Source: Candidatus Poribacteria bacterium (GTDB taxonomy: Bacteria > Poribacteria > WGA-4E > PCPOR2b). Taken from it: DNA of 50,937 nucleotides. Below, piece by piece: positions 40,867 to 50,937 of the stretch. Numbering within the stretch: the first letter of the stretch is position 1; the number at the start of each line of letters is the position of its first letter. Under the pieces are notes generated by a model. It made no database searches and was not told the DNA's origin. It saw nothing but the letters and a program-made list of their open reading frames with translations. The stretch spans positions 5,023-55,959 of the forward strand of contig JAGWBT010000013.1 of assembly GCA_021295755.1 (NCBI GenBank). Direction: 5' to 3'. Made by a program: the position numbers and the translations under genes.

Positions 40867-40946
40867 CAGTGTAAGCCGATCTTTGAATCGGCGAATCAGG
40901 TTCCAATTTTGAAGTTTTGACTCATTTCTAACGATTTGCTTTTACT

Positions 40947-40974
40947 TGCGCTTTATATGGAGATCGGTTATAAT
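40947..40974 (+). promoter_or_regulatory. Candidate promoter of the rex-hem operon
   Basis: TTGCGC (40947-40952), a 16-bp spacer and TATAAT (40969-40974), about 35 bp before the rex start. I could not find a clear Rex operator (TTGTG-N8-CACAA type) nearby. Confidence 0.5.
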
Positions 40975-41010
40975 GTACTGATTTTTTATATAGTTTGCGG
41001 TCAGGTCATA

Positions 41011-41667
41011 ATGAGCTCAAATGCTTCGCTTATTCTGAACTATGAAAACATCTCCCAAGCCACAATCAATCGCCTCTCTTTGTACTCCCGGCTTTTATCA
41101 ACGCTTGCACTCGAAGGGGTCACGGTTGTGTCTTCAAAGGAGTTATCAGGACGCACCGATTTTACAGCGACTCAAATCCGAAGAGACTTAGCTTATTTTG
41201 GACAATTCGGGAAGCGTGGGATCGGCTATGAGGTTGCTGCGCTTAAACAAGCCATTGACAAAATTCTCGGCGTTCATGTCCCTCGAAAAGTTGCACTCAT
41301 CGGTGTCGGTAACTTGGGAAGTGCTTTATTGGGGTATCGCGTACTGCGGGAACACAATTTTGAGATTGTTGCGGCATTCGATAATGATTCAAGTAAATGG
41401 GATCGGGGCATCAATGACGTTGTGATCCAGAACATCGCAGAGCTTCCCGCAACCGTGCAATCCAAGCAAATTGAAATTGGCATTATTGCCGTGCCGCTCC
41501 ATGCGGCGCAGAGCGCACTCGATTGTCTCGTTGCAGCAGGGATTAAGGCGATTCTTAATTTTGCGCCAGCGCACCTGACCGTTCCACGTCATATTAAACT
41601 GAGAAATGTTGATTTATCTATAGAGCTTGAAGGGCTTTCTTACTTTTTGCAGCATCAAGCGCCATAA
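41011..41667 (+). CDS. rex: Redox-sensing transcriptional repressor Rex
   Basis: 218 residues from the ATG at 41011. An ATG 25 codons earlier would include non-homologous, promoter-like sequence. The N-terminal winged helix shows QATINRLSLYSRLLSTL, SSKELSGRTDFTATQIRRDL and AYFGQFGKRGIGYEV, the hallmark of Rex. The Rossmann domain has KVALIGVGNLGSALLGY (Gly98, Gly100, Gly103). The C-terminal domain-swapped helix is visible as VDLSIELEGLSYFLQ. Rex senses the NADH/NAD+ ratio and represses respiratory and fermentative genes when NAD+ is high. It ends 9 bp before hemB, implying that haem synthesis is redox-controlled in this organism, though no operator was found by eye. Confidence 0.92.
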   Translation: MSSNASLILNYENISQATINRLSLYSRLLSTLALEGVTVVSSKELSGRTDFTATQIRRDLAYFGQFGKRGIGYEVAALKQAIDKILGVHVPRKVALIGVGNLGSALLGYRVLREHNFEIVAAFDNDSSKWDRGINDVVIQNIAELPATVQSKQIEIGIIAVPLHAAQSALDCLVAAGIKAILNFAPAHLTVPRHIKLRNVDLSIELEGLSYFLQHQAP

Positions 41668-41676
41668 GGAGTATCT

Positions 41677-42630
41677 ATGAGTCACTTTCCGATTTATCGC
41701 CCGAGACGGCTCCGTGCTAACGAGAACCTCCGGCGGCTTGTTCGAGAGACACAACTTGCCGTTGATGACTTAATCTACCCGATGTTTGTTGTCCATGGGG
41801 TTGATGTTGCATCGGAGATCCCATCAATGCCGGGGTGTTACCAATACTCAGTCGATCGACTCGTCCGGGAAGCAAAGGAACTGGCAGCCCTTGGCATTCC
41901 GGGCACACTCCTATTCGGGATTCCAGAATCCAAAGATCCGGTCGGCTCCGAAGCCTACGCCGACGATGGCATTATTCAGCGTGCTGTGCGAGCGATCAAG
42001 GACGCTGTCCCTGAGTTACTCGTAATCACAGATGTTTGCCTTTGCGAATATACGGATCACGGCCATTGTGGTATAATCCATGAGGGCGAGGTACTGAATG
42101 ACCCCACGTTGGAATTATTGGTTAAAGAGAGTTTGTCCCATGCCCGCGCCGGTGCAGATGTCATCGCACCATCCGATATGATGGACGGACGAGTGGGGGC
42201 AATCCGCGAGGCATTGGACGACAACGGATACGATCAAACTCCCATCATGGCGTATTCCGCAAAATATGCATCCGCGTTCTACGGCCCCTTCCGAGAAGCG
42301 GCAGAATCCGCTCCACAGTTTGGTGATAGGCGTGCGTATCAGATGGATCCCCCGAATGTGGAGGAAGCGTTGCGGGAGGTTGCCTTAGATATTGAGGAAG
42401 GTGCGGATATCCTCATGGTCAAGCCTGCGCTGTCCTATCTTGATGTGCTCAGTCAGGTAAAAACGCATTACGTGAGCGGGGAATACTCAATGATCAAAGC
42501 CGCGGGACAAAACGGTTGGATCGACGAAAAGCGGGTTGCGTTAGAGGTGCTCACCAGCATCAAGCGTGCAGGCGCAGATATAATCTTGACTTACTTTGCA
42601 AAATCGGTTGTGGAGTGGCTCGCAGAATAA
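41677..42630 (+). CDS. hemB: Porphobilinogen synthase (delta-aminolevulinic acid dehydratase)
   Basis: 317 residues. [18 protein letters not shown] and [10 protein letters not shown] open the chain. The zinc-type ligands are Cys121, Cys123 and Cys131 in [14 protein letters not shown], so it is of the zinc-dependent rather than magnesium-only class. Active-site lysines are Lys196 ([18 protein letters not shown]) and Lys249 ([12 protein letters not shown]). It condenses two ALA molecules to porphobilinogen. AAGGAG precedes the ATG. It is the second gene of the rex-hem operon and is followed by hemL after 19 bp. Confidence 0.96.
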
Positions 42631-42649
42631 ATGAAAGGGAGAAAACAAG

Positions 42650-43933
42650 TTGAACAACGCCAAATCTTTGGCAGCATGGCAAAAATCACAGCAACTTATT
42701 CCCGGCGGCGTTAATAGTCCGGTAAGAAACTTTAATAAGGTTGGTGGTAGTCCACTCTTTATCCAGCGTGGTAAAGGTTCAAGGGTCTATGACATCGACG
42801 GTAACGAATATATCGACTATTTGGCATCATGGGGACCACTAATTTTAGGGCATGCACATCCGAGCATTCTTGAGGCAATTCAAGGGGTGGCAGAGAACGG
42901 TACCAGCTTCGGGGCGGCAACGCCATTAGAAACGGAACTTGCTGAACTGATAGTTGACGCCTGCCAGTCAATCGAGATTGTTCGATTGGTCAACTCCGGC
43001 ACAGAAGCTACAATGAGCGCAATCCGCGTGGCACGGGGATACACTGGGCGCGATAAGGTCATCAAAATGGCGGGTTGTTATCACGGGCATGTTGACTCAC
43101 TCCTCGCCGAAGCGGGGTCCGGGGTTGCAACCTTCAGCGTCCCTGAGTGTATGGGCATCCCGGCAGATTTCACACGACACACCCTCGTTGTACCGTTCAA
43201 TGACGTTGATGCCGTGCGAGATACAATTGAAGCGAATCCCGATCAGATCGCCTGCTTGATTCTTGAACCGATCGCAGGCAATATGGGTGTGATACCGCCG
43301 CATGACGGTTACCTTCAAGAATTGCGCGAGATTACCACCGAATACGGCATTCTGCTCATTTTCGATGAAGTGATCACCGGATTTCGTGTAGCGTACGGCG
43401 GGGCACAGACCCTCTACGGAGTTACCCCCGATATGACCTGCCTTGGCAAGATCATCGGCGGAGGAATGCCGGTCGGTGCGTACGGAGGAAAAAAAGAGAT
43501 TATGGAAAATGTCGCGCCACTCGGTGGCGTCTACCAAGCAGGAACATTATCGGGCAATCCGCTTGCAGTATCCGCTGGAATCGCAATGCTGAAAGCGCTT
43601 TCCGAGCCTAATGTCTATGATCAACTTGAGACACGCGCTGCTACCCTTGCAGAGGGACTCCAAGCAGCCACCAAACGCCACGGAATTGACGCTTGGCACA
43701 GTCGAATCGGTTCGATGTTGATGTTCTATTTCACAAATGAAACCGTCGTCGATTACGAGGGCGTACAGACCGCGGATACCGAGCGTTACGCACCTTATTT
43801 CTGGAATTTGCTTGAGAAAGGGGTTTATGTCGCGCCATCTCAGTTCGAGACCGGCTTTGTTTCACTGGCACATTCTGAGGCAGATATAGACCAGACAATC
43901 CAAGCAGCCGATGAAGTGTTATCAAGACTTTAA
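42650..43933 (+). CDS. hemL: Glutamate-1-semialdehyde 2,1-aminomutase
   Basis: 427 residues from a TTG start with GGGAG eight bases upstream; this start gives the family's expected opening NAKSLAAWQKSQQLIPGGVN followed by SPVR. PLP contacts include VNSGTEATMSAIRVARG, Asp239 in LIFDEVITGFRV and the Schiff-base Lys267 in TCLGKIIGGGMPVGAYGG. It converts glutamate-1-semialdehyde, supplied by HemA, to 5-aminolevulinate, so the cell uses the C5 route. A divergent paralogue lies at 7598-8929. Genes hemB and hemL are adjacent, as in many bacteria. Confidence 0.96.
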   Translation: MNNAKSLAAWQKSQQLIPGGVNSPVRNFNKVGGSPLFIQRGKGSRVYDIDGNEYIDYLASWGPLILGHAHPSILEAIQGVAENGTSFGAATPLETELAELIVDACQSIEIVRLVNSGTEATMSAIRVARGYTGRDKVIKMAGCYHGHVDSLLAEAGSGVATFSVPECMGIPADFTRHTLVVPFNDVDAVRDTIEANPDQIACLILEPIAGNMGVIPPHDGYLQELREITTEYGILLIFDEVITGFRVAYGGAQTLYGVTPDMTCLGKIIGGGMPVGAYGGKKEIMENVAPLGGVYQAGTLSGNPLAVSAGIAMLKALSEPNVYDQLETRAATLAEGLQAATKRHGIDAWHSRIGSMLMFYFTNETVVDYEGVQTADTERYAPYFWNLLEKGVYVAPSQFETGFVSLAHSEADIDQTIQAADEVLSRL

Positions 43934-43976
43934 CATATGAAAGGGAGATAAACGGAGAAACAAAAAGGAGCATAAC

Positions 43977-44054
43977 GTGAAAGTTATAGGCGAAAGAATC
44001 AACCTTCACGTTTCACGTTTCACGTTTCATATCCATGCTAACACCAAGCCTTAG
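43977..44054 (+). pseudogene. Possible 5' remnant of a pterin-binding methyltransferase gene
   Basis: GTG behind AAAAAGGAG begins a frame MKVIGERIN, which matches the start of MetH/AcsE-type pterin-binding domains (typically xxIIGERIN). After nine codons it enters the CACGTTTCACG tract and stops at 44052-44054. The match is short, so this is tentative. Confidence 0.3.
44005..44030 (+). repeat. cacgtttcacg-family tract before the prenyl synthase gene
   Basis: TTCACG followed by TTTCACG repeated three times, ending five bases before the ATG at 44035 and leaving that gene without an evident ribosome-binding site. Same family as 34581-34622 and 1673-1698. Confidence 0.55.
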
Positions 44055-45021
44055 CGAAATTTGTCATTTTATTACAGACGACTTACAAGCTGTCGAAAAA
44101 AAACTTAGCGAGAAAACTACGAGTCATTACGATTTTGTTGATCTTGCTGTCCAGCATGTGGTCGAAGGGGGTGGAAAGCGGCTGCGCCCAATCCTGTTGT
44201 TGCTCTCCGCCAAAGCATGTGGGTACCAAGGCGAGGATGCCCATACGCTTGCAGCAACTGTTGAGCTAATCCATGTCGCATCGCTCGTTCATGATGATGT
44301 ACTTGATGAAGCACCTATGCGTCGGGGACGTGAAACATTGCATTCTAAATGGGGCAATAAAGTGGCGGTGCTCGTCGGAGACTATCTTCATGCCCGCGTG
44401 CTTTCGATGCTCGTCAATCGACGTGCCGATGATCTCGCGATGGCGCTTCTCTCCGACGCGACACATTCGATGTGTGAAGGGGAAGTCATCCACGCCTATA
44501 AAAATGGGGATTTTGACATTTCGCAGGACGACTATCTAAAAATCATCGACCTGAAAACGGGCAAACTTATCACTGCCTCGTGCGCGATGGGAGCAGTACT
44601 TGGAACACAGGATTCGCAAATTACCCAAGCCTTGACAGAATATGGGGAAGCGATCGGCGCAGCATTTCAGATTATTGATGATCTCCTCGACCTCGTGGCA
44701 GATGGAGAAACGTTAGGCAAGGAACCATTTAACGACCTACGTGATGGAAAACTGACATTTCCGATGATCTATGCTCGTGAAGTCTGTACAACCGAGGATA
44801 GGACGGAACTCGAACGAATTTTTAGTTTACAAATGGATGAGGCTGGGGCAATCGAATGGATCGAAGCGCTGCTTGAACGCTATCAGATTCAGGCACATTC
44901 CCGTGGGGTTGCTCAAGAATACGCCGACCACGCGAAATCTGCTTTGAATGTGCTCCCTGAAACGCCTGCAAGAGATGCACTTGCTCAGCTTGCGGACTAC
45001 GGTGTGTCGAGGGATTGGTAA
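44035..45021 (+). CDS. Long-chain polyprenyl diphosphate synthase
   Basis: 328 residues of trans-isoprenyl diphosphate synthase. GGGKRLRPILLLLS binds isopentenyl diphosphate. The first Asp-rich motif is LVHDDVLDEAPMRRG (Asp87, Asp88, Asp91) and the second is FQIIDDLLDLVAD (Asp215, Asp216, Asp219), both binding Mg-pyrophosphate. Small residues (VASLVHDD) before the first motif, without bulky blocks, favour long products, as in octaprenyl or heptaprenyl synthases for quinone side chains. Its position among haem genes fits respiratory-chain biogenesis. No ribosome-binding site is evident because a repeat tract occupies the upstream 30 bp. Chain length needs biochemical proof. Confidence 0.9.
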   Translation: MLTPSLSEICHFITDDLQAVEKKLSEKTTSHYDFVDLAVQHVVEGGGKRLRPILLLLSAKACGYQGEDAHTLAATVELIHVASLVHDDVLDEAPMRRGRETLHSKWGNKVAVLVGDYLHARVLSMLVNRRADDLAMALLSDATHSMCEGEVIHAYKNGDFDISQDDYLKIIDLKTGKLITASCAMGAVLGTQDSQITQALTEYGEAIGAAFQIIDDLLDLVADGETLGKEPFNDLRDGKLTFPMIYAREVCTTEDRTELERIFSLQMDEAGAIEWIEALLERYQIQAHSRGVAQEYADHAKSALNVLPETPARDALAQLADYGVSRDW

Positions 45022-45151
45022 AAAAATAATACGCAACGAGTAATACGTAAAGGATTATTTACACAACCACCGTCATTTCGTAGGCACGTTTTTTTACGTC
45101 TTACGCATTATCCTTCATAGAAACAGTGGGTACAGAGAAGAACGGGCTATA

Positions 45152-46351
45152 ATGCCCCAATGTGCTACCTTTGATATCATGTTCTATCCAGCGTATCTGA
45201 ACCTCCAAAATCGTAAATGCCTCGTTGTGGGGGCAGGGCTTGTTGCCGAACGAAAAGTGCTTTCTCTGCTGCGCAGCGGCGGGGATGTAACATTAATCAG
45301 TCCCGAAGCGACGCAAGCCAATGCGGATTTGGCACAGCACGATCGGATTGCATGGTATAAACGCCAGTTTCGGCCCGGCGATACGGAAGAGATGTTCCTT
45401 GTCTGTGCGGCAACCGATCTGCCGGAAATCAATACACAAGTATTCAAGGAGGCACACGAAGTATACGGAATCAACCTTGTTAATGTAGTTGATGTGATCC
45501 CTGAATGCACCTTCGCAGCGGCATCCGTAATTACGCACGAAGACCTGACGATTAGCATCTCTACAAGCGGCAAGAGCCCTGCGTTGTCTAGGCGCATCCG
45601 AGAATATCTTGAAGCAAAATTCGGAGCGGCATCTCTTTACGATGAACCATCTGAGACAAATTTCAATCTGCCTCTCAAGGGGGACGGACTTCCGTATCCG
45701 GTCTATTTTCTGTTGGAGAATCGCCATTGTGTCGTAATCAGCAATTCAGAGGAGATAACACAACCCCTCGCGCAGAGATTAGACCTATTGTTGCGGTGCG
45801 GTGCATCTGTTGAACGAGTTGCTCCGAACTCCGACAACTTAGAACATGTATCAGATGCTTTTCTTGTGTTGGTTGACGATTGCAAGTCCAAAGTTTCTGA
45901 CTTCGCCGATCTCAATCGGCATCAACTAATTGAATGCATCAATACTCCAAGATTTAGTACATTCACCACGCCTCCTCTGGTGAGAGACAGCGATTTGATT
46001 ATCAGTATCTCCGCCAATCATATTCAGGCAATCGACAAAGGTGTAAACGGGAACCGTAAAATCGAGTCTGTACAAACCCAGCTTGCCCATCAGTTTAAAA
46101 ATAACGGTTATGGGAAGTTTATCGATTTTCTCGGTTCGCTACGACCTATGGTGATGGAATCTATCCTAACTCAAAAAGGTCGCCAGCAATACTACGATCA
46201 CCTTATCGATCAGATTCCCGGAAATGAAGGGCAGAAATGCTGCTTAGGCTTTGAAGCCCCTAGCTGTGCGGTTGAATGCACTTTCAATATGATCCGTAGC
46301 GGGCGGATCGACGCTGCTCGCCAATATGCTCTTCAACGGGTCCGTGAATAA
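45152..46351 (+). CDS. Duplicated Met8/SirC-like precorrin-2 dehydrogenase protein
   Basis: 399 residues, about twice the usual length. Residues about 11-158 are a Met8/CysG-N domain: FYPAYLNLQNRKCLVVGAGL with the NAD motif Gly27-x-Gly29-x-x-Ala32, Asp114 in NVVDVIPECTF as likely catalytic acid, then DLTISISTSGKSPALSRRIR. Residues about 181-355 repeat this plan (YPVYFLLENRHCVVISNSEE, ERVAP, LIISISANHIQA), but the glycines are lost and Asp114 becomes Asn264. The tail holds four cysteines (363, 364, 372, 376). The family oxidises precorrin-2 and may insert Fe2+ for sirohaem. The start at 45152 overlaps a TATAAT string; the family-like start MFYPAYLNL would be 45179. Confidence 0.85.
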   Translation: MPQCATFDIMFYPAYLNLQNRKCLVVGAGLVAERKVLSLLRSGGDVTLISPEATQANADLAQHDRIAWYKRQFRPGDTEEMFLVCAATDLPEINTQVFKEAHEVYGINLVNVVDVIPECTFAAASVITHEDLTISISTSGKSPALSRRIREYLEAKFGAASLYDEPSETNFNLPLKGDGLPYPVYFLLENRHCVVISNSEEITQPLAQRLDLLLRCGASVERVAPNSDNLEHVSDAFLVLVDDCKSKVSDFADLNRHQLIECINTPRFSTFTTPPLVRDSDLIISISANHIQAIDKGVNGNRKIESVQTQLAHQFKNNGYGKFIDFLGSLRPMVMESILTQKGRQQYYDHLIDQIPGNEGQKCCLGFEAPSCAVECTFNMIRSGRIDAARQYALQRVRE

Positions 46352-46386
46352 ACTTAGTAGATACGCTTCTTACATTTTATGTCACA

Positions 46387-47202
46387 ATGAATTCACAATT
46401 CTTTTATACGCTTTTGCTAGTCTATTTGGCAGCAAGCATACTTCACATTCTTTTCCTCGCCACTGGGAATCGAAGGATTGCGCAATTCGCCTACTGGCTG
46501 ACGATAGGAGGGTTTTCGCTACACTCGTTCTTTATCGTACTGCGCTGGCGGCATACAGGACATCTAACAGCGCATTGGTATGATTCAACCTCCTTCTTAG
46601 CATGGGCGATTATTTTGATTTACCTGTGCATCGCATACCGGACCCGTCTTCGCACGATTGGGGTTTTTGTAGTTCCTGCTGCTTTTATAGCCACTTTAGT
46701 CGTTTACACGCTACAAACTCAAGAAAATACTGCGATTCCCGCTTATTTGCAAAACTACTGGCTCCTCGCCCATTCTTCTGTTATCTTTCTGGCTTACGCT
46801 GCATTCGTCGCCGCGTTTGGGTTTGGACTGATGTATCTGATTGAAGAGAAGAAAATTCGTGAAAAGCAGCACACACTCATCTTTAATCTCCTGCCCGCGC
46901 TTGGCCGCTCCGATGAGCTTTGTCACAAGTGTATCTTCGTTGGCGTAATTTTGATGACGATGGGCATTGTTATTGGTGTACTCTGGACACAGTACACCAT
47001 AGAAGTTAAATGGACATGGCTCGATTCAAAGGTTATCTTCACAATCGCCACATGGCTTATCTATGTGTTACAACTCAGTATCCGCCAAATTCTCGGTTGG
47101 CGCGGGCGTAAAACCGCCTATTCTGCAATTATCGGTTTGGCTGCTGTGTTGTTCACCTATGTAGGCGTTAATCTTTTTTTACCTAGTATACACGCATTCT
47201 AA
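46387..47202 (+). CDS. Cytochrome c assembly/HemX-like membrane protein (CcsA family)
   Basis: 271 residues with about eight predicted transmembrane helices, among them FFYTLLLVYLAASILHILFL, FLAWAIILIYLCI, VFVVPAAFIATLVVYTL, LLAHSSVIFLAYAAFVAAF and VILMTMGIVIGVLW. The LLAHSSVIFLAYAAF and WTQYTIEVKWTWLDSKV segments match the CcsA/HemX family, whose conserved histidines (HSLH near 45-48, LLAH near 128) can handle haem. HemX lies next to hemA in Bacillus and modulates HemA levels; CcsA delivers haem to apocytochromes c. Lying directly 10 bp before hemA, a HemX-like role is the better inference. No WWD haem motif is obvious. Confidence 0.85.
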   Translation: MNSQFFYTLLLVYLAASILHILFLATGNRRIAQFAYWLTIGGFSLHSFFIVLRWRHTGHLTAHWYDSTSFLAWAIILIYLCIAYRTRLRTIGVFVVPAAFIATLVVYTLQTQENTAIPAYLQNYWLLAHSSVIFLAYAAFVAAFGFGLMYLIEEKKIREKQHTLIFNLLPALGRSDELCHKCIFVGVILMTMGIVIGVLWTQYTIEVKWTWLDSKVIFTIATWLIYVLQLSIRQILGWRGRKTAYSAIIGLAAVLFTYVGVNLFLPSIHAF

Positions 47203-47212
47203 CATTTAACAG

Positions 47213-48535
47213 ATGAATCAAATTGTCACTGTCGGCACCAGCCATCATATTGCATCGCTCGATTTTCGAGAACAGTTGTCGTTTTCTGAAAGCCAGCTTA
47301 CAGAGGCTCTCCAACTTTTAAGCGAACATCCCGACGTTCGAGAGGCAGCAATTCTCTCGACCTGCAATCGTGTCGAAGTCTATGCCGTGACTCACAGTAA
47401 AGAGGGTTGTGCTGTTCTTTTCGATTTTCTATCAAATTATCATCAAATCGAGCCGCAACAACTGGACAAGTTTACATATAGCCACCAAAATCTCGATGCA
47501 GTTCGCCATCTCTTTAATGTAACTGCAAGCCTCGATTCCATGGTTGTCGGCGAGCCTCAGATTCTTGGTCAGGTGAAAGAGGCGTATGCCCAATCACTCG
47601 CTGCTGGTGCAACCGGTGATATCTTGAATCGCTTGTTTACCAAAGCACTAAGTGTTGGCAAGCGCGTCCGAACTGAAACTAACATCGCCGCCGGTGCGGT
47701 GTCTATCAGCTATGCATCGGTTGAACTTGCTAAGAAGATTTTTCAAAGCCTAGAAGATAAAACGGTCACTATCATCGGTGCCGGTGAAATGAGTGAATTA
47801 ACAGCCCAACACCTTGTGAAGAACAATGTCTCGAAAGTCATCGTGGCAAACCGAACATATCAACGTGCAGTCGACATCGCGAAAAAATTTAATGGGATTC
47901 CCCTAGCGTATGACGCCGACCTAAGTTTCCTTGTCGAAGCAGACATTGTGATCAGTTCAACCGATGCACCGCATTACCTAATTGATCGGCATTCACTTGC
48001 AGAGATTATGAGACAGCGGAAGCACCGCTATATGTTCCTGATTGACATCGCTGTACCGCGTGATATCGATCCTGAAGTGAGCAAAGTAGACAACGCCTTC
48101 CTATATAATATCGATGATCTTGAGATGGTAGTCGCCTCAAACCTCAAAGACCGGGGACATGAAGCAGAGATCGCAGCGCAGATTGTCAAGGAAGAAGTCG
48201 TAAAATTCCAGTCACAGTTGCAAGCCTTTGAAGTCAATCCGACGATCAAAGCACTCCATCAGCAATTTCAGGGAGTGGTTTCAAAAGAGTTAGCAGTCTG
48301 TCTTGACAAAGCGCAGCTGACTCCTAAACAGCAGAAGACGGTTGAAGCTATGACGCAAGCGATTATCAAAAAATTGTTGCATCAACCGACAGCAAGTTTG
48401 CGGCAGGTCGCTTTGAATTCTGATCTTATCGGGGCAATTAATGATAGCGATGGCGAACATGTGCAGTATGTTCGCGCGCTGCAGGAATTGTTTGATTTGG
48501 AAAAGGCAGCAAATACGAATGACGCAGAAAACTAA
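47213..48535 (+). CDS. hemA: Glutamyl-tRNA reductase
   Basis: 440 residues. The N-terminal catalytic domain has VTVGTSHHIASLDFREQLSF and ILSTCNRVEVYAV with nucleophile Cys51, plus LDSMVVGEPQILGQVKEAY. The NADPH domain has VTIIGAGEMSELTAQHL and ISSTDAPHYLI, followed by the conserved LIDIAVPRDIDP. The C-terminal dimerisation helix ends in HVQYVRALQELFDLE. It reduces glutamyl-tRNA to glutamate-1-semialdehyde, the committed step. In most operons of this kind hemC follows directly; here a restriction-modification locus starts 5 bp after the hemA stop. Confidence 0.96.
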   Translation: MNQIVTVGTSHHIASLDFREQLSFSESQLTEALQLLSEHPDVREAAILSTCNRVEVYAVTHSKEGCAVLFDFLSNYHQIEPQQLDKFTYSHQNLDAVRHLFNVTASLDSMVVGEPQILGQVKEAYAQSLAAGATGDILNRLFTKALSVGKRVRTETNIAAGAVSISYASVELAKKIFQSLEDKTVTIIGAGEMSELTAQHLVKNNVSKVIVANRTYQRAVDIAKKFNGIPLAYDADLSFLVEADIVISSTDAPHYLIDRHSLAEIMRQRKHRYMFLIDIAVPRDIDPEVSKVDNAFLYNIDDLEMVVASNLKDRGHEAEIAAQIVKEEVVKFQSQLQAFEVNPTIKALHQQFQGVVSKELAVCLDKAQLTPKQQKTVEAMTQAIIKKLLHQPTASLRQVALNSDLIGAINDSDGEHVQYVRALQELFDLEKAANTNDAEN

Positions 48536-48540
48536 AGCAT

Positions 48541-49380
48541 ATGGTACGGATGGATGTAGTCAATTTGATTCTCGAAATCGCTGGATCGGAAAATGCTTTC
48601 GACATTTTGGAAGAACAATTTTCAGAAATCACGAAGGATAAGTTGAGTTCAAGTCTATTAGAATGTGGAATTATTCCTGAGTTATTGGAACACGACTCAT
48701 CTGAAGAAAAGTTATGGGCTAAATACTGTGACATCCTATTAGCGCAAACATGGACGCATTTGTCTATTCCTGCCGAAGTTTTAAGAGCGAGAGGTGACTC
48801 TGCTGACGTTTTTGGAAGAACTCATAATTGTAGTATTGTTGGTGATGCCAAAGCATTCCGCCTGAGTCGCACAGCAAAAAATCAGAAGGATTTTAAGGTA
48901 CAAGCACTAGACGATTGGCGCAAAAGTAATACATACGCTTGTCTTGTATCACCGCTTTATCAATATCCTCAGCGAGCAAGCCAAATTTACGGACAAGCAA
49001 TTGAGCGAAACGTCACCTTGTTATCATACACCCATCTCAAATTTCTACTTGATTGCACTGATGGACAAAATCTCGATCCCCTTTAGTGTATAGGCAATGA
49101 GCTACCAAAAAGCAAAAATGCCCAACAGTACTGGGAAGTAATTGATGAGACAACGCGTAAAATCGCTGGTGAAAGCGAAGAGACACTCAGCAGTTATAAA
49201 CAGGAAACAATTGATAAAATCAAACAACTCGGTAAAGAAGGCATTGATTATTGGGAAACAAGAATAGCCGATTATAAGAAATTATCCCAAGAAGAAGCAG
49301 TAGCAAGACTGATTAAGGCAGAAAAAGTTGAAGCTAAGATCTCGACAATACAAAAGGCGATTGAAATTGTTCAATCGTAA
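48541..49380 (+). pseudogene. HindIII-like type II restriction endonuclease with in-frame amber codon
   Basis: A single frame of 280 codons, starting ATG at 48541 and ending TAA at 49378-49380, broken only by TAG at 49084-49086 (codon 182). Before the stop, GDAKAFRLSRTAKNQKDFKV (Asp102-x-Lys104), LVSPLYQYPQRASQIYGQAI and LLSYTHLKFLL match the HindIII family's PD-(D/E)xK core. After the stop the same frame continues with GNELPKSKNAQQYWEVID, TTRKIAGESEETLSSYKQE and KEGIDYWETRIADYKKL, a plausible helical C-terminal region. The total of 279 residues with the amber codon read fits HindIII-type enzymes. TGG to TAG is a single change. The enzyme is probably inactive unless the stop is suppressed. 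Confidence 0.78.
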
Positions 49381-49388
49381 AAAAACTG

Positions 49389-50315
49389 ATGGACACATTA
49401 CTTGATAAAATTATCCAAGGCGATTGTATAGATTGGCTTCCCAAAATTCCACCGGAATCTGTTCACCTCTTCCTCTCGGATATACCTTACGGCATCGGAT
49501 TGGACGATTGGGATGTTCTACACAATAACACAAATTCTGCTTATCTCGGTCAATCCCCGGCGCAACATGGCAAAAGTGGCTTCAAAAGAAGAGGAAAACC
49601 GATTCGGGGATGGAACGCCGCTGACAGGAACATTGTCAGAGACTACCAAAAATGGTGCGATCAGTGGGCGCAACTCGTTTACCCCGTCATGAAAAAAGGG
49701 GCAAGCTTATTCGTGTTCGGTGCACGTCGAACCATCCACAGAGCAATTATTGCGCTTGAGGATGCTGGTTTTCTGCTTCGTGACGTTCTTATTTGGAAAA
49801 AGGATTCTGCTCACCATCGGAGTCAACGTTTGGAAATCGTCCTGAATAGAAGGGGAGAAGAAAAGTTATCAGAAAAGTGGAAGGGGTGGCGGATAGGCAA
49901 TTTAGCACCGATCTACGAACCGATTGCATGGTTGTTTAAGCCGTATGACCACACAATTACTGACAATATCATTGAAAACGAAGTTGGAGGGATGAATATC
50001 GCCGAATGTTTAATCAATGGCAAAAGTCCTACCAATGTGTTAGAGATTGACTTTCGCCCCAACGAAACACGAGTACATGAAGCACAGAAACCTGTTGCTC
50101 TAATGGAATACCTTATTAGACTCACGACGCTTGATAATCAGATTGTGCTAGATCCCTTTATTGGAAGTGGAACGACTGCAATTGCATGTCGTAACTTGAA
50201 CCGAAGGTTTATCGGTTTCGAGATTAACGAATCCTATTATCACAGTGCCCTCCGCCGATTGGAAACTGAAACGAAGCAATTACGGTTTCTACATGAGTCG
50301 GCCGGGGCAGGCTAA
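49389..50315 (+). CDS. DNA methyltransferase (beta-class N6/N4), cognate of the HindIII-like locus
   Basis: 308 residues, about the length of HindIII-type methyltransferases. The catalytic motif IV is LSDIPYGIG (Asp31-Ile-Pro-Tyr34) near the N terminus. The S-adenosylmethionine motif I, VLDPFIGSGTTAIACRNL, is near residue 254, so order IV then I makes it beta class. RFIGFEINESYYHSALRRL is motif II. It would methylate adenine N6 or cytosine N4 in the recognition site to protect host DNA; the specificity (AAGCTT if truly HindIII-like) is inference. It starts 8 bp after the endonuclease frame and is intact. Codons 274-282 are duplicated as DNA just before hemC. Confidence 0.9.
   Translation: MDTLLDKIIQGDCIDWLPKIPPESVHLFLSDIPYGIGLDDWDVLHNNTNSAYLGQSPAQHGKSGFKRRGKPIRGWNAADRNIVRDYQKWCDQWAQLVYPVMKKGASLFVFGARRTIHRAIIALEDAGFLLRDVLIWKKDSAHHRSQRLEIVLNRRGEEKLSEKWKGWRIGNLAPIYEPIAWLFKPYDHTITDNIIENEVGGMNIAECLINGKSPTNVLEIDFRPNETRVHEAQKPVALMEYLIRLTTLDNQIVLDPFIGSGTTAIACRNLNRRFIGFEINESYYHSALRRLETETKQLRFLHESAGAG
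50208..50234 (+). repeat. Direct repeat, copy 1 (within the methyltransferase)
   Basis: TTTATCGGTTTCGAGATTAA with CGAATCC, coding for FIGFEINES. A 27-nt copy with one A/G difference lies at 50577-50603. Confidence 0.85.
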
Positions 50316-50420
50316 ACCATTGGGAAATTCGCTGGAATCCACTTCGACGAGTCGCAAACGCTGATACAAACGAATAAAGATTGTAGCTGATGTTATACAA
50401 ACCTGATCAAGGAACCTACA

Positions 50421-50561
50421 ATGGAGACATTCGGAATTATCGGAATGGCACTTGGAATGACTGGCTTTCTCTTTGGCATGTTAGCTTATGCTTTGACTGC
50501 TCGCCTCCAAGGACGGATAGAACGTTTGGAATCTGAACTTGAAAAATTGAGAGCTGAATAG
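50421..50561 (+). CDS. 46-residue membrane microprotein
   Basis: ATG with AAGGAA eight bases upstream opens a 46-codon frame ending TAG. Residues 4-24 (FGIIGMALGMTGFLFGMLAYA) form one hydrophobic transmembrane helix; the remainder (LQGRIERLESELEKLRAE) is a short amphipathic coiled-coil with clear heptads. The layout is common for small uncharacterised membrane proteins in many phyla, usually annotated hypothetical. It lies between the methyltransferase and the repeat copy before hemC. It could belong to the inserted restriction-modification segment or to the host operon. Confidence 0.6.
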   Translation: METFGIIGMALGMTGFLFGMLAYALTARLQGRIERLESELEKLRAE

Positions 50562-50576
50562 TGTCGCTTGAATTGC

Positions 50577-50603
50577 TTTATCGGTTTCGAGATTAACGAG
50601 TCC
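50577..50603 (+). repeat. Direct repeat, copy 2 (just upstream of hemC)
   Basis: Matches 50208-50234 at 26 of 27 positions and ends two bases before the hemC ATG. It occupies the position where a ribosome-binding site would be expected. Confidence 0.85.
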
Positions 50604-50605
50604 AT

Positions 50606-50937
50606 ATGAAACAAACTATCACCATCGGCACACGCGGCAGCCAACTTGCTCTCTGGCAGGCAGAATATGTGAGGAAGCGTCTGAATGATCACTTTCCCAA
50701 CCGCTCGATTGAACTCAAAATCATCAAGACGACGGGGGATAGAATTACAGACCGCTCTCTCGTCGGACTCGGTAAAGGAGTTTTTACGAAGGAGATTGAA
50801 ATTGCGCTTTTGGACGGCACAATTGATCTCGCTGTCCACAGCATGAAAGATCTGCCGACAGATCTGCCTGACGGGCTCTGTATCGCCGCTATCCCCGTGC
50901 GCGAAGACCCTCGCGATGTGCTGGTCACGCAGTCTGG
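50606..50937 (+). CDS. hemC: Porphobilinogen deaminase (hydroxymethylbilane synthase), N-terminal part
   Basis: The first 110 residues are present; the gene runs off the window. TITIGTRGSQLALWQAEYV, IIKTTGDRI, GLGKGVFTKEIEIALLDG, DLAVHSMKDLPTDLP and IPVREDPRDVLV are textbook HemC motifs, including the Lys and Asp that contact the growing pyrrole chain. It polymerises four porphobilinogen units to hydroxymethylbilane, continuing the operon's pathway. Upstream there is no good Shine-Dalgarno site because a 27-bp copy of methyltransferase sequence abuts the ATG, so expression may be altered or depend on translation from the upstream microprotein. Confidence 0.95.
   Translation, partial: MKQTITIGTRGSQLALWQAEYVRKRLNDHFPNRSIELKIIKTTGDRITDRSLVGLGKGVFTKEIEIALLDGTIDLAVHSMKDLPTDLPDGLCIAAIPVREDPRDVLVTQS

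What the first reader, a model, noticed from the sequence alone, without database searches (positions are those of the whole stretch)
48541..49380. HindIII-like endonuclease gene split by a single in-frame amber codon
The frame is open on both sides of TAG (codon 182), with protein-like, family-like sequence continuing to codon 279, while the adjacent methyltransferase is intact. This is the expected decay pattern (restriction lost first), but a suppressible amber or natural recoding would leave an active enzyme. TGG to TAG is the simplest origin.
Basis: partly seen in the sequence, partly recalled or inferred. Interest (0 to 1): 0.7.

Follow-up and report, generated by a model that had tools for sequence, protein, structure and literature searches.

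The report
HindIII-type nuclease cut by nonsense codon
A sponge-type Poribacteria genome carries a HindIII-like restriction system in which one early stop codon removes the last third of the DNA-cutting enzyme while the partner DNA-methylating enzyme stays intact, an ordinary and probably recent decay of a bacterial defence system (or, less likely, a one-base assembly error).

Summary
Frame 48541-49380 is a HindIII-family endonuclease (Pfam PF09518) interrupted once, by TAG at codon 182 (49084-49086); both halves match the family, and the adjacent methyltransferase is intact. A same-genus genome (91% identical) and one from another family of the order (79%) have uninterrupted genes at the same hemA-R-M-hemC position, both with TGG at codon 182. 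Of 86 homologue rows (some duplicate loci), 61 have Trp there and none ends there. TGG to TAG is therefore the simplest origin. No UAG-reading tRNA was found, release factor 1 is present, TAG is an ordinary terminator, no in-frame restart codon follows, and no recoding element was detected. Truncation removes four long C-terminal helices of the HindIII fold. The gene is otherwise well conserved, with a weak hint of relaxed selection, so the lesion is probably recent, or is a consensus or strain-level artefact. Raw reads were not available, so this is unresolved. Verdict: ordinary decay of a type II restriction-modification system leaving a probable orphan methylase; low interest. More unusual in passing: the hemA-hemC gap suggests repeated gain and loss of this cassette.

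The parts
48541..49083 (+). 5' part of HindIII-family restriction endonuclease gene (181 codons, predicted product); holds the PD-(D/E)XK-type core, including the invariant D102-A-K104 and the RxAKNQKDFK block
   Evidence: PF09518 E 4.4e-58; all 27 invariant columns of the 56-row alignment lie in residues 46-153
49084..49086 (+). in-frame amber codon TAG at codon 182; TGG (Trp) in the two nearest orthologues
49087..49380 (+). 3' part of the endonuclease gene (97 codons plus TAA), not expected to be translated; helices 184-278 of the read-through model; no in-frame ATG, GTG or TTG
   Evidence: PF09518 E 2.8e-11; model; restart scan
49389..50315 (+). intact beta-class (motif IV before motif I) N6/N4 DNA methyltransferase, partner of the endonuclease
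   Evidence: PF01555 E 3.3e-46; conserved columns intact; orthologues adjacent to R in G004 and G009
47213..48535 (+). hemA (glutamyl-tRNA reductase), upstream neighbour; R start codon lies 5 bases after its stop codon
   Evidence: name from general knowledge of the protein and the haem gene cluster
50422..50562 (+). small ORF (about 46 codons) between M and hemC; also present in G002, G003 and G004
   Evidence: sequence and alignment
50577..50604 (+). scrap matching the 3' part of the M gene (27 bases, 96% identical), immediately upstream of hemC
50606..50937 (+). hemC (hydroxymethylbilane synthase), 5' part, runs off the window
   Evidence: name from general knowledge

Best explanation
A complete HindIII-type type II restriction-modification cassette sits between hemA and hemC of a Poribacteria (sponge-symbiont type) genome. 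In this lineage a single G-to-A change turned Trp182 (TGG) of the endonuclease into TAG. Translation stops after 181 residues. The product keeps the catalytic core but lacks the C-terminal helical part of the fold, so it should be unstable or inactive. The methyltransferase, in its own intact reading frame, should go on methylating the HindIII-type site (AAGCTT by homology, not shown) as a solitary enzyme. Shown: the frame, the stop, the family, the TGG in orthologues, the intact methyltransferase frame, the absence of a detected suppressor or restart. Inferred: loss of restriction activity, continued methylation, and that the stop is in the living genome.
For: Both halves belong to PF09518. 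TGG in G004 and G009 in near-identical sequence context. Uninterrupted orthologues at the same hemA-R-M-hemC place. Trp or another hydrophobic residue in all 86 homologue rows, none ending there. No CUA tRNA, RF1 present, TAG an ordinary terminator (39 of 147 coding-like ORFs; 6 of 32 window genes). No in-frame restart codon. The read-through model (pLDDT 93) matches HindIII 2e52 with TM-score 0.90; helices 194-209, 213-246, 250-260 and 263-278 are lost. Two of 80 other HindIII-family loci are similarly interrupted (L020 TGA, L035 TAG), each with an intact M, so the pattern recurs at low frequency. Weak sign of relaxed constraint on this branch: amino-acid changes 10:6 (this genome: G004) in R against 11:20 in M plus hemA (p = 0.12), one at a 95%-conserved site (Y97C); a joint codon model with free branch lengths gains 2.5 lnL units for a neutral last fifth of the branch.
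Against: No reads were available, so a consensus error or a minority strain variant is possible. Except for the stop, R looks almost fully conserved: the window departs from only 1 of 56 columns that are at least 85% conserved, as a recent break, an error or a read-through gene would all give. The relaxation signal is weak and depends on how branch lengths are set.
Confidence: 0.77

Rival explanations
1. The TAG is not fixed in the organism: it is a base error in the metagenome assembly, or a minority strain variant picked by the assembler; the enzyme is intact in most cells.
For: The genome is an assembly of 257 contigs with 4.7% estimated contamination. The rest of R is nearly perfectly conserved.
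Against: No other long gene read in the window looks obviously broken, so the contig is not obviously error-rich. Weak extra amino-acid change in R on this branch. A random error would rarely give exactly a stop.
Confidence: 0.17
2. The amber codon is leaky or read (suppressor tRNA, near-cognate Trp or Gln tRNA, or a recoding signal), so some full-length endonuclease is made and restriction is merely lowered.
For: The downstream frame is intact and still family-like. The tRNA set seen is not complete (no tRNA-Asp found), so an unassembled tRNA cannot be excluded.
Against: No CUA tRNA, RF1 present, TAG used as a normal terminator. No special fold (z = -1.27). Orthologues have a plain sense codon, so nothing suggests an evolved read-through.
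Confidence: 0.04
3. The 181-residue product, which keeps every invariant residue of the family, has a retained function of its own (for example DNA binding or nicking).
For: All 27 invariant columns lie before the stop.
Against: A third of a compact dimeric enzyme is lost, including nearly invariant A253, L257, I267, I270; no relative ends here.
Confidence: 0.02

Closest known systems
HindIII restriction-modification system (R.HindIII, PDB 2e52/3a4k; Pfam PF09518)
   Same: Same fold (TM-score 0.90, 31% identity on structural alignment), same family, R accompanied by a methyltransferase
   Different: R is interrupted at codon 182 here; recognition site not tested; chromosomal position inside a haem-biosynthesis gene cluster
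G004 cassette (JAJDUM010000111.1, Candidatus Poribacteria, L006/L010) and G009 cassette (JAPPIK010000025.1, L007/L011)
   Same: 91% and 79% identical R, 93% and 86% identical M, same hemA-R-M-hemC position
   Different: R uninterrupted in both, with TGG at codon 182
Orphan methyltransferases next to degraded restriction genes (Seshasayee et al., as cited in PMC6471742)
   Same: Intact methyltransferase beside a broken endonuclease gene
   Different: Here the lesion is a single codon with little other decay, i.e. a very early stage

Membership tests
HindIII-family type II restriction endonuclease (PF09518) | Profile match above curated cut-off over nearly the full model | tested here: met
   243.9 bits against cut-off 25.3, model 18-283 of 285, for the read-through; both halves match apart
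HindIII-family type II restriction endonuclease (PF09518) | PD-(D/E)XK-type core with the family's invariant residues | tested here: met
   D102, K104, the AKNQKDFK block and the other invariant residues present before the stop
HindIII-family type II restriction endonuclease (PF09518) | HindIII fold | tested here: met
   AlphaFold2 model of the read-through, pLDDT 93, matches 2e52 at TM-score 0.90
HindIII-family type II restriction endonuclease (PF09518) | Full-length uninterrupted product | tested here: not met
   TAG at codon 182; no restart or suppressor detected. Filed as a disrupted member (pseudogene), not an active one
HindIII-family type II restriction endonuclease (PF09518) | Cleavage at A|AGCTT | not testable with these tools
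   No assay; AAGCTT depletion in the genome (0.56 of expected) is not specific to genomes with the cassette (0.39 and 0.70 in two without it)
Beta-class N6/N4 DNA methyltransferase (PF01555), partner of HindIII-type R | Motif IV before motif I, intact frame, adjacent to R | tested here: met
   SDIPYG near the N-terminal end, DPFIGSGTT near the C-terminal end; 67 of 80 R loci have such an M next to R
Stop-codon recoding (suppressed amber) | A tRNA reading UAG, or TAG avoided as terminator, or a recoding element | tested here: not met
   No CUA tRNA among 43 distinct tRNAs, TAG ends 39 of 147 coding-like ORFs, RF1 present, no Rfam hit; the tRNA set is incomplete

The most novel reading that the evidence does not exclude
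The amber codon is partially read in this symbiont, giving a low-activity restriction enzyme that keeps the cassette in the haem gene cluster with little self-damage.
Probability: 0.03. Interest if true: 0.55.

Novelty: new member of a known kind. Interest (0 to 1): 0.2.

Why it matters
It is a clean early example of a restriction-modification system losing restriction first: one nonsense codon, nearly no other damage, and intact relatives at the same chromosomal place to compare with. The place itself is of some use: the hemA-hemC gap in this order shows presence, absence and scraps of the same cassette in related genomes, so gain and loss of a type II system can be followed at one locus.

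Tried and rejected
Genome-wide TAG reassignment: rejected, TAG is a normal terminator and long open frames after TAG (9 of 64) are not clearly commoner than after TAA or TGA (13 of 190) or than in relatives. Suppressor tRNA: none found, though tRNA-Asp is also missing from the set, so the set is incomplete. Restart downstream: no ATG, GTG or TTG in frame. RNA recoding element: z -1.27, no Rfam hit. Natural family end at this position: none. Dating by AAGCTT avoidance: uninformative, relatives without the cassette are depleted too. Dating the stop by codon models: loosely bounded only; with free branch lengths any neutral fraction from 0 to 1 stays within about 2.6 lnL units of the best, with equal branches more than about 0.2 is disfavoured. 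Synonymous changes polarised on G009 (20 synonymous, 2 nonsynonymous plus the stop) were not relied on, because that outgroup is near saturation. The stop in L085 lies before the likely true start and the M stops in L049, L076, L087 lie at the very end of the match, so they were not counted as broken genes. No phage record carries a relative; 19 plasmids carry ones below 60% identity (the listed ones about 40%) and 8 viral contigs ones at 38-42%.

Full report
Observation. The stretch 48541-49380 reads as 181 codons, TAG, 97 codons and TAA. The reading frame on both sides is HindIII-family protein: PF09518 hits the 181-residue part with E 4.4e-58, the 97-residue part alone with E 2.8e-11, and the read-through with E 2.7e-72. 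HindIII itself is the best solved structure by sequence, and the AlphaFold2 model of the read-through protein (pLDDT 93) matches HindIII 2e52 with TM-score 0.90. An open frame of 97 codons arises in 0.075% of shuffles of that stretch. The methyltransferase that follows at 49389-50315 is unbroken, PF01555 E 3.3e-46, and keeps 88 of 90 highly conserved positions.

Origin of the stop. In the genomes searched around the window's own (98 in all), the two closest relatives of the gene are uninterrupted: G004 of the same genus (91% identity) and G009 of another family in the same order (79%). Both have TGG where the window has TAG, after the same LDPL. Across 86 homologue rows (including a few duplicate loci) the aligned residue is Trp in 61, Phe in 20, Leu in 4 and Met in 1; none ends there. 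A single G-to-A change is the simplest account.

Can the codon be read? ARAGORN on the tRNA loci found in the genome gives 43 distinct tRNAs, none with a CUA anticodon; tRNA-Asp is not among them, so the set is slightly incomplete. RF1 is present. TAG ends 39 of 147 coding-like ORFs in a 450-kb sample and 6 of 32 genes read in the window. There is no in-frame start codon after the stop, the local RNA fold is unremarkable and no Rfam family matches. Suppression or programmed recoding thus has no support, though it is not strictly excluded.

What is lost. All 27 invariant columns of the family alignment lie before the stop, so the catalytic core is encoded. The lost part is helices 184-187, 194-209, 213-246, 250-260 and 263-278, with the nearly invariant A253, L257, I267 and I270. 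HindIII acts as a homodimer (PMC4081073). Losing a third of such an enzyme should abolish activity; this is inference.

How old is it? Between the window and G004 the endonuclease has dN/dS 0.096, the methyltransferase 0.079, hemA 0.080. The window departs from only one of 56 strongly conserved columns, Y97C. Amino-acid changes assigned to this genome's branch against that of G004 are 10:6 in R and 11:20 in M plus hemA, p = 0.12. A joint codon model prefers a neutral fraction of about 0.2 of the branch by 2.5 lnL units with free branch lengths, and about 0.05 (gain 0.35, not significant) with equal branches, where more than about 0.2 is disfavoured. With free branch lengths an old break cannot be excluded firmly. 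The most likely reading is a break that is recent relative to the split, or an assembly or strain artefact; reads were not available.

Family background. Of 80 HindIII-family loci from the genome collection, two more are interrupted by one in-frame stop (L020 TGA, L035 TAG), each with an intact methyltransferase next to it. Loss of restriction with retention of methylation is a known fate: orphan methyltransferases beside degraded endonuclease genes are reported (PMC6471742, citing Seshasayee et al.). The same paper, citing Oliveira et al., notes that the step from restriction-modification methyltransferase to orphan methyltransferase is infrequent.

The place. R starts 5 bases after the hemA stop codon, and hemC lies about 290 bases after M. 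The cassette is at this same place in G004 and G009. At E below 1e-60 the M gene occurs in the window's genome, G004, G009 and G065 only, among 73 genomes of the order, and each of these also has R. In G001 the gap between hemA and hemC is about 25 bases. In G004 an approximately 80-base second copy of the hemA 3' end lies after M, 84% identical to that of G003. Directly before hemC the window, G004 and also G003, which has no cassette, carry what looks like a scrap of the M gene, and G002, also without cassette, carries a different scrap (for G003 this rests on the alignment, not on a separate BLAST hit). dS between the window and G004 is lower for R (0.46) and M (0.38) than for hemA (0.88), which fits later sharing of the cassette. 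Gain and loss at one site is the simplest reading. It resembles the insertion of restriction systems with long target duplication named in the literature (found by search), but that was not tested further.

Verdict. Ordinary: a disrupted member of the HindIII family beside a probable orphan methyltransferase. Interest is low for the amber codon itself and modest for the locus history.

Noticed in passing
window 50577-50604; G002, G003, G004 upstream of hemC (L148, L149, L006): Scraps resembling the M-gene 3' part lie directly upstream of hemC, also in two same-genus genomes that lack the restriction-modification cassette, suggesting past presence and loss at this site.
   Followed up: partly
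L006 (G004), just downstream of M: About 80 bases duplicate the 3' end of hemA (84% to the hemA end of G003) after the cassette, as if the cassette arrived with its own hemA end by homologous recombination.
   Followed up: partly
window 48541-50315 against hemA: dS between the window's genome and G004 is about half as large in R and M as in hemA, which suggests more recent sharing of the cassette than of the surrounding chromosome.
   Followed up: partly
L020 and L035: Two further HindIII-family endonuclease genes (Anaerolineae assemblies) are interrupted by one in-frame stop each, with intact methyltransferases.
   Followed up: partly
G000 sampled stretches (about 450 kb): TTCGAA (0.07 of expected) and CTCGAG (0.17) are strongly depleted; TTCGAA is depleted in the three sampled same-genus relatives too. 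Cause not examined.
   Followed up: no
window 40936-50937: Rex-like regulator followed by a haem-synthesis cluster (hemB, hemL, prenyl synthase, siroheme-type gene, cytochrome c assembly gene, hemA, hemC) that hosts the cassette (names from general knowledge).
   Followed up: no
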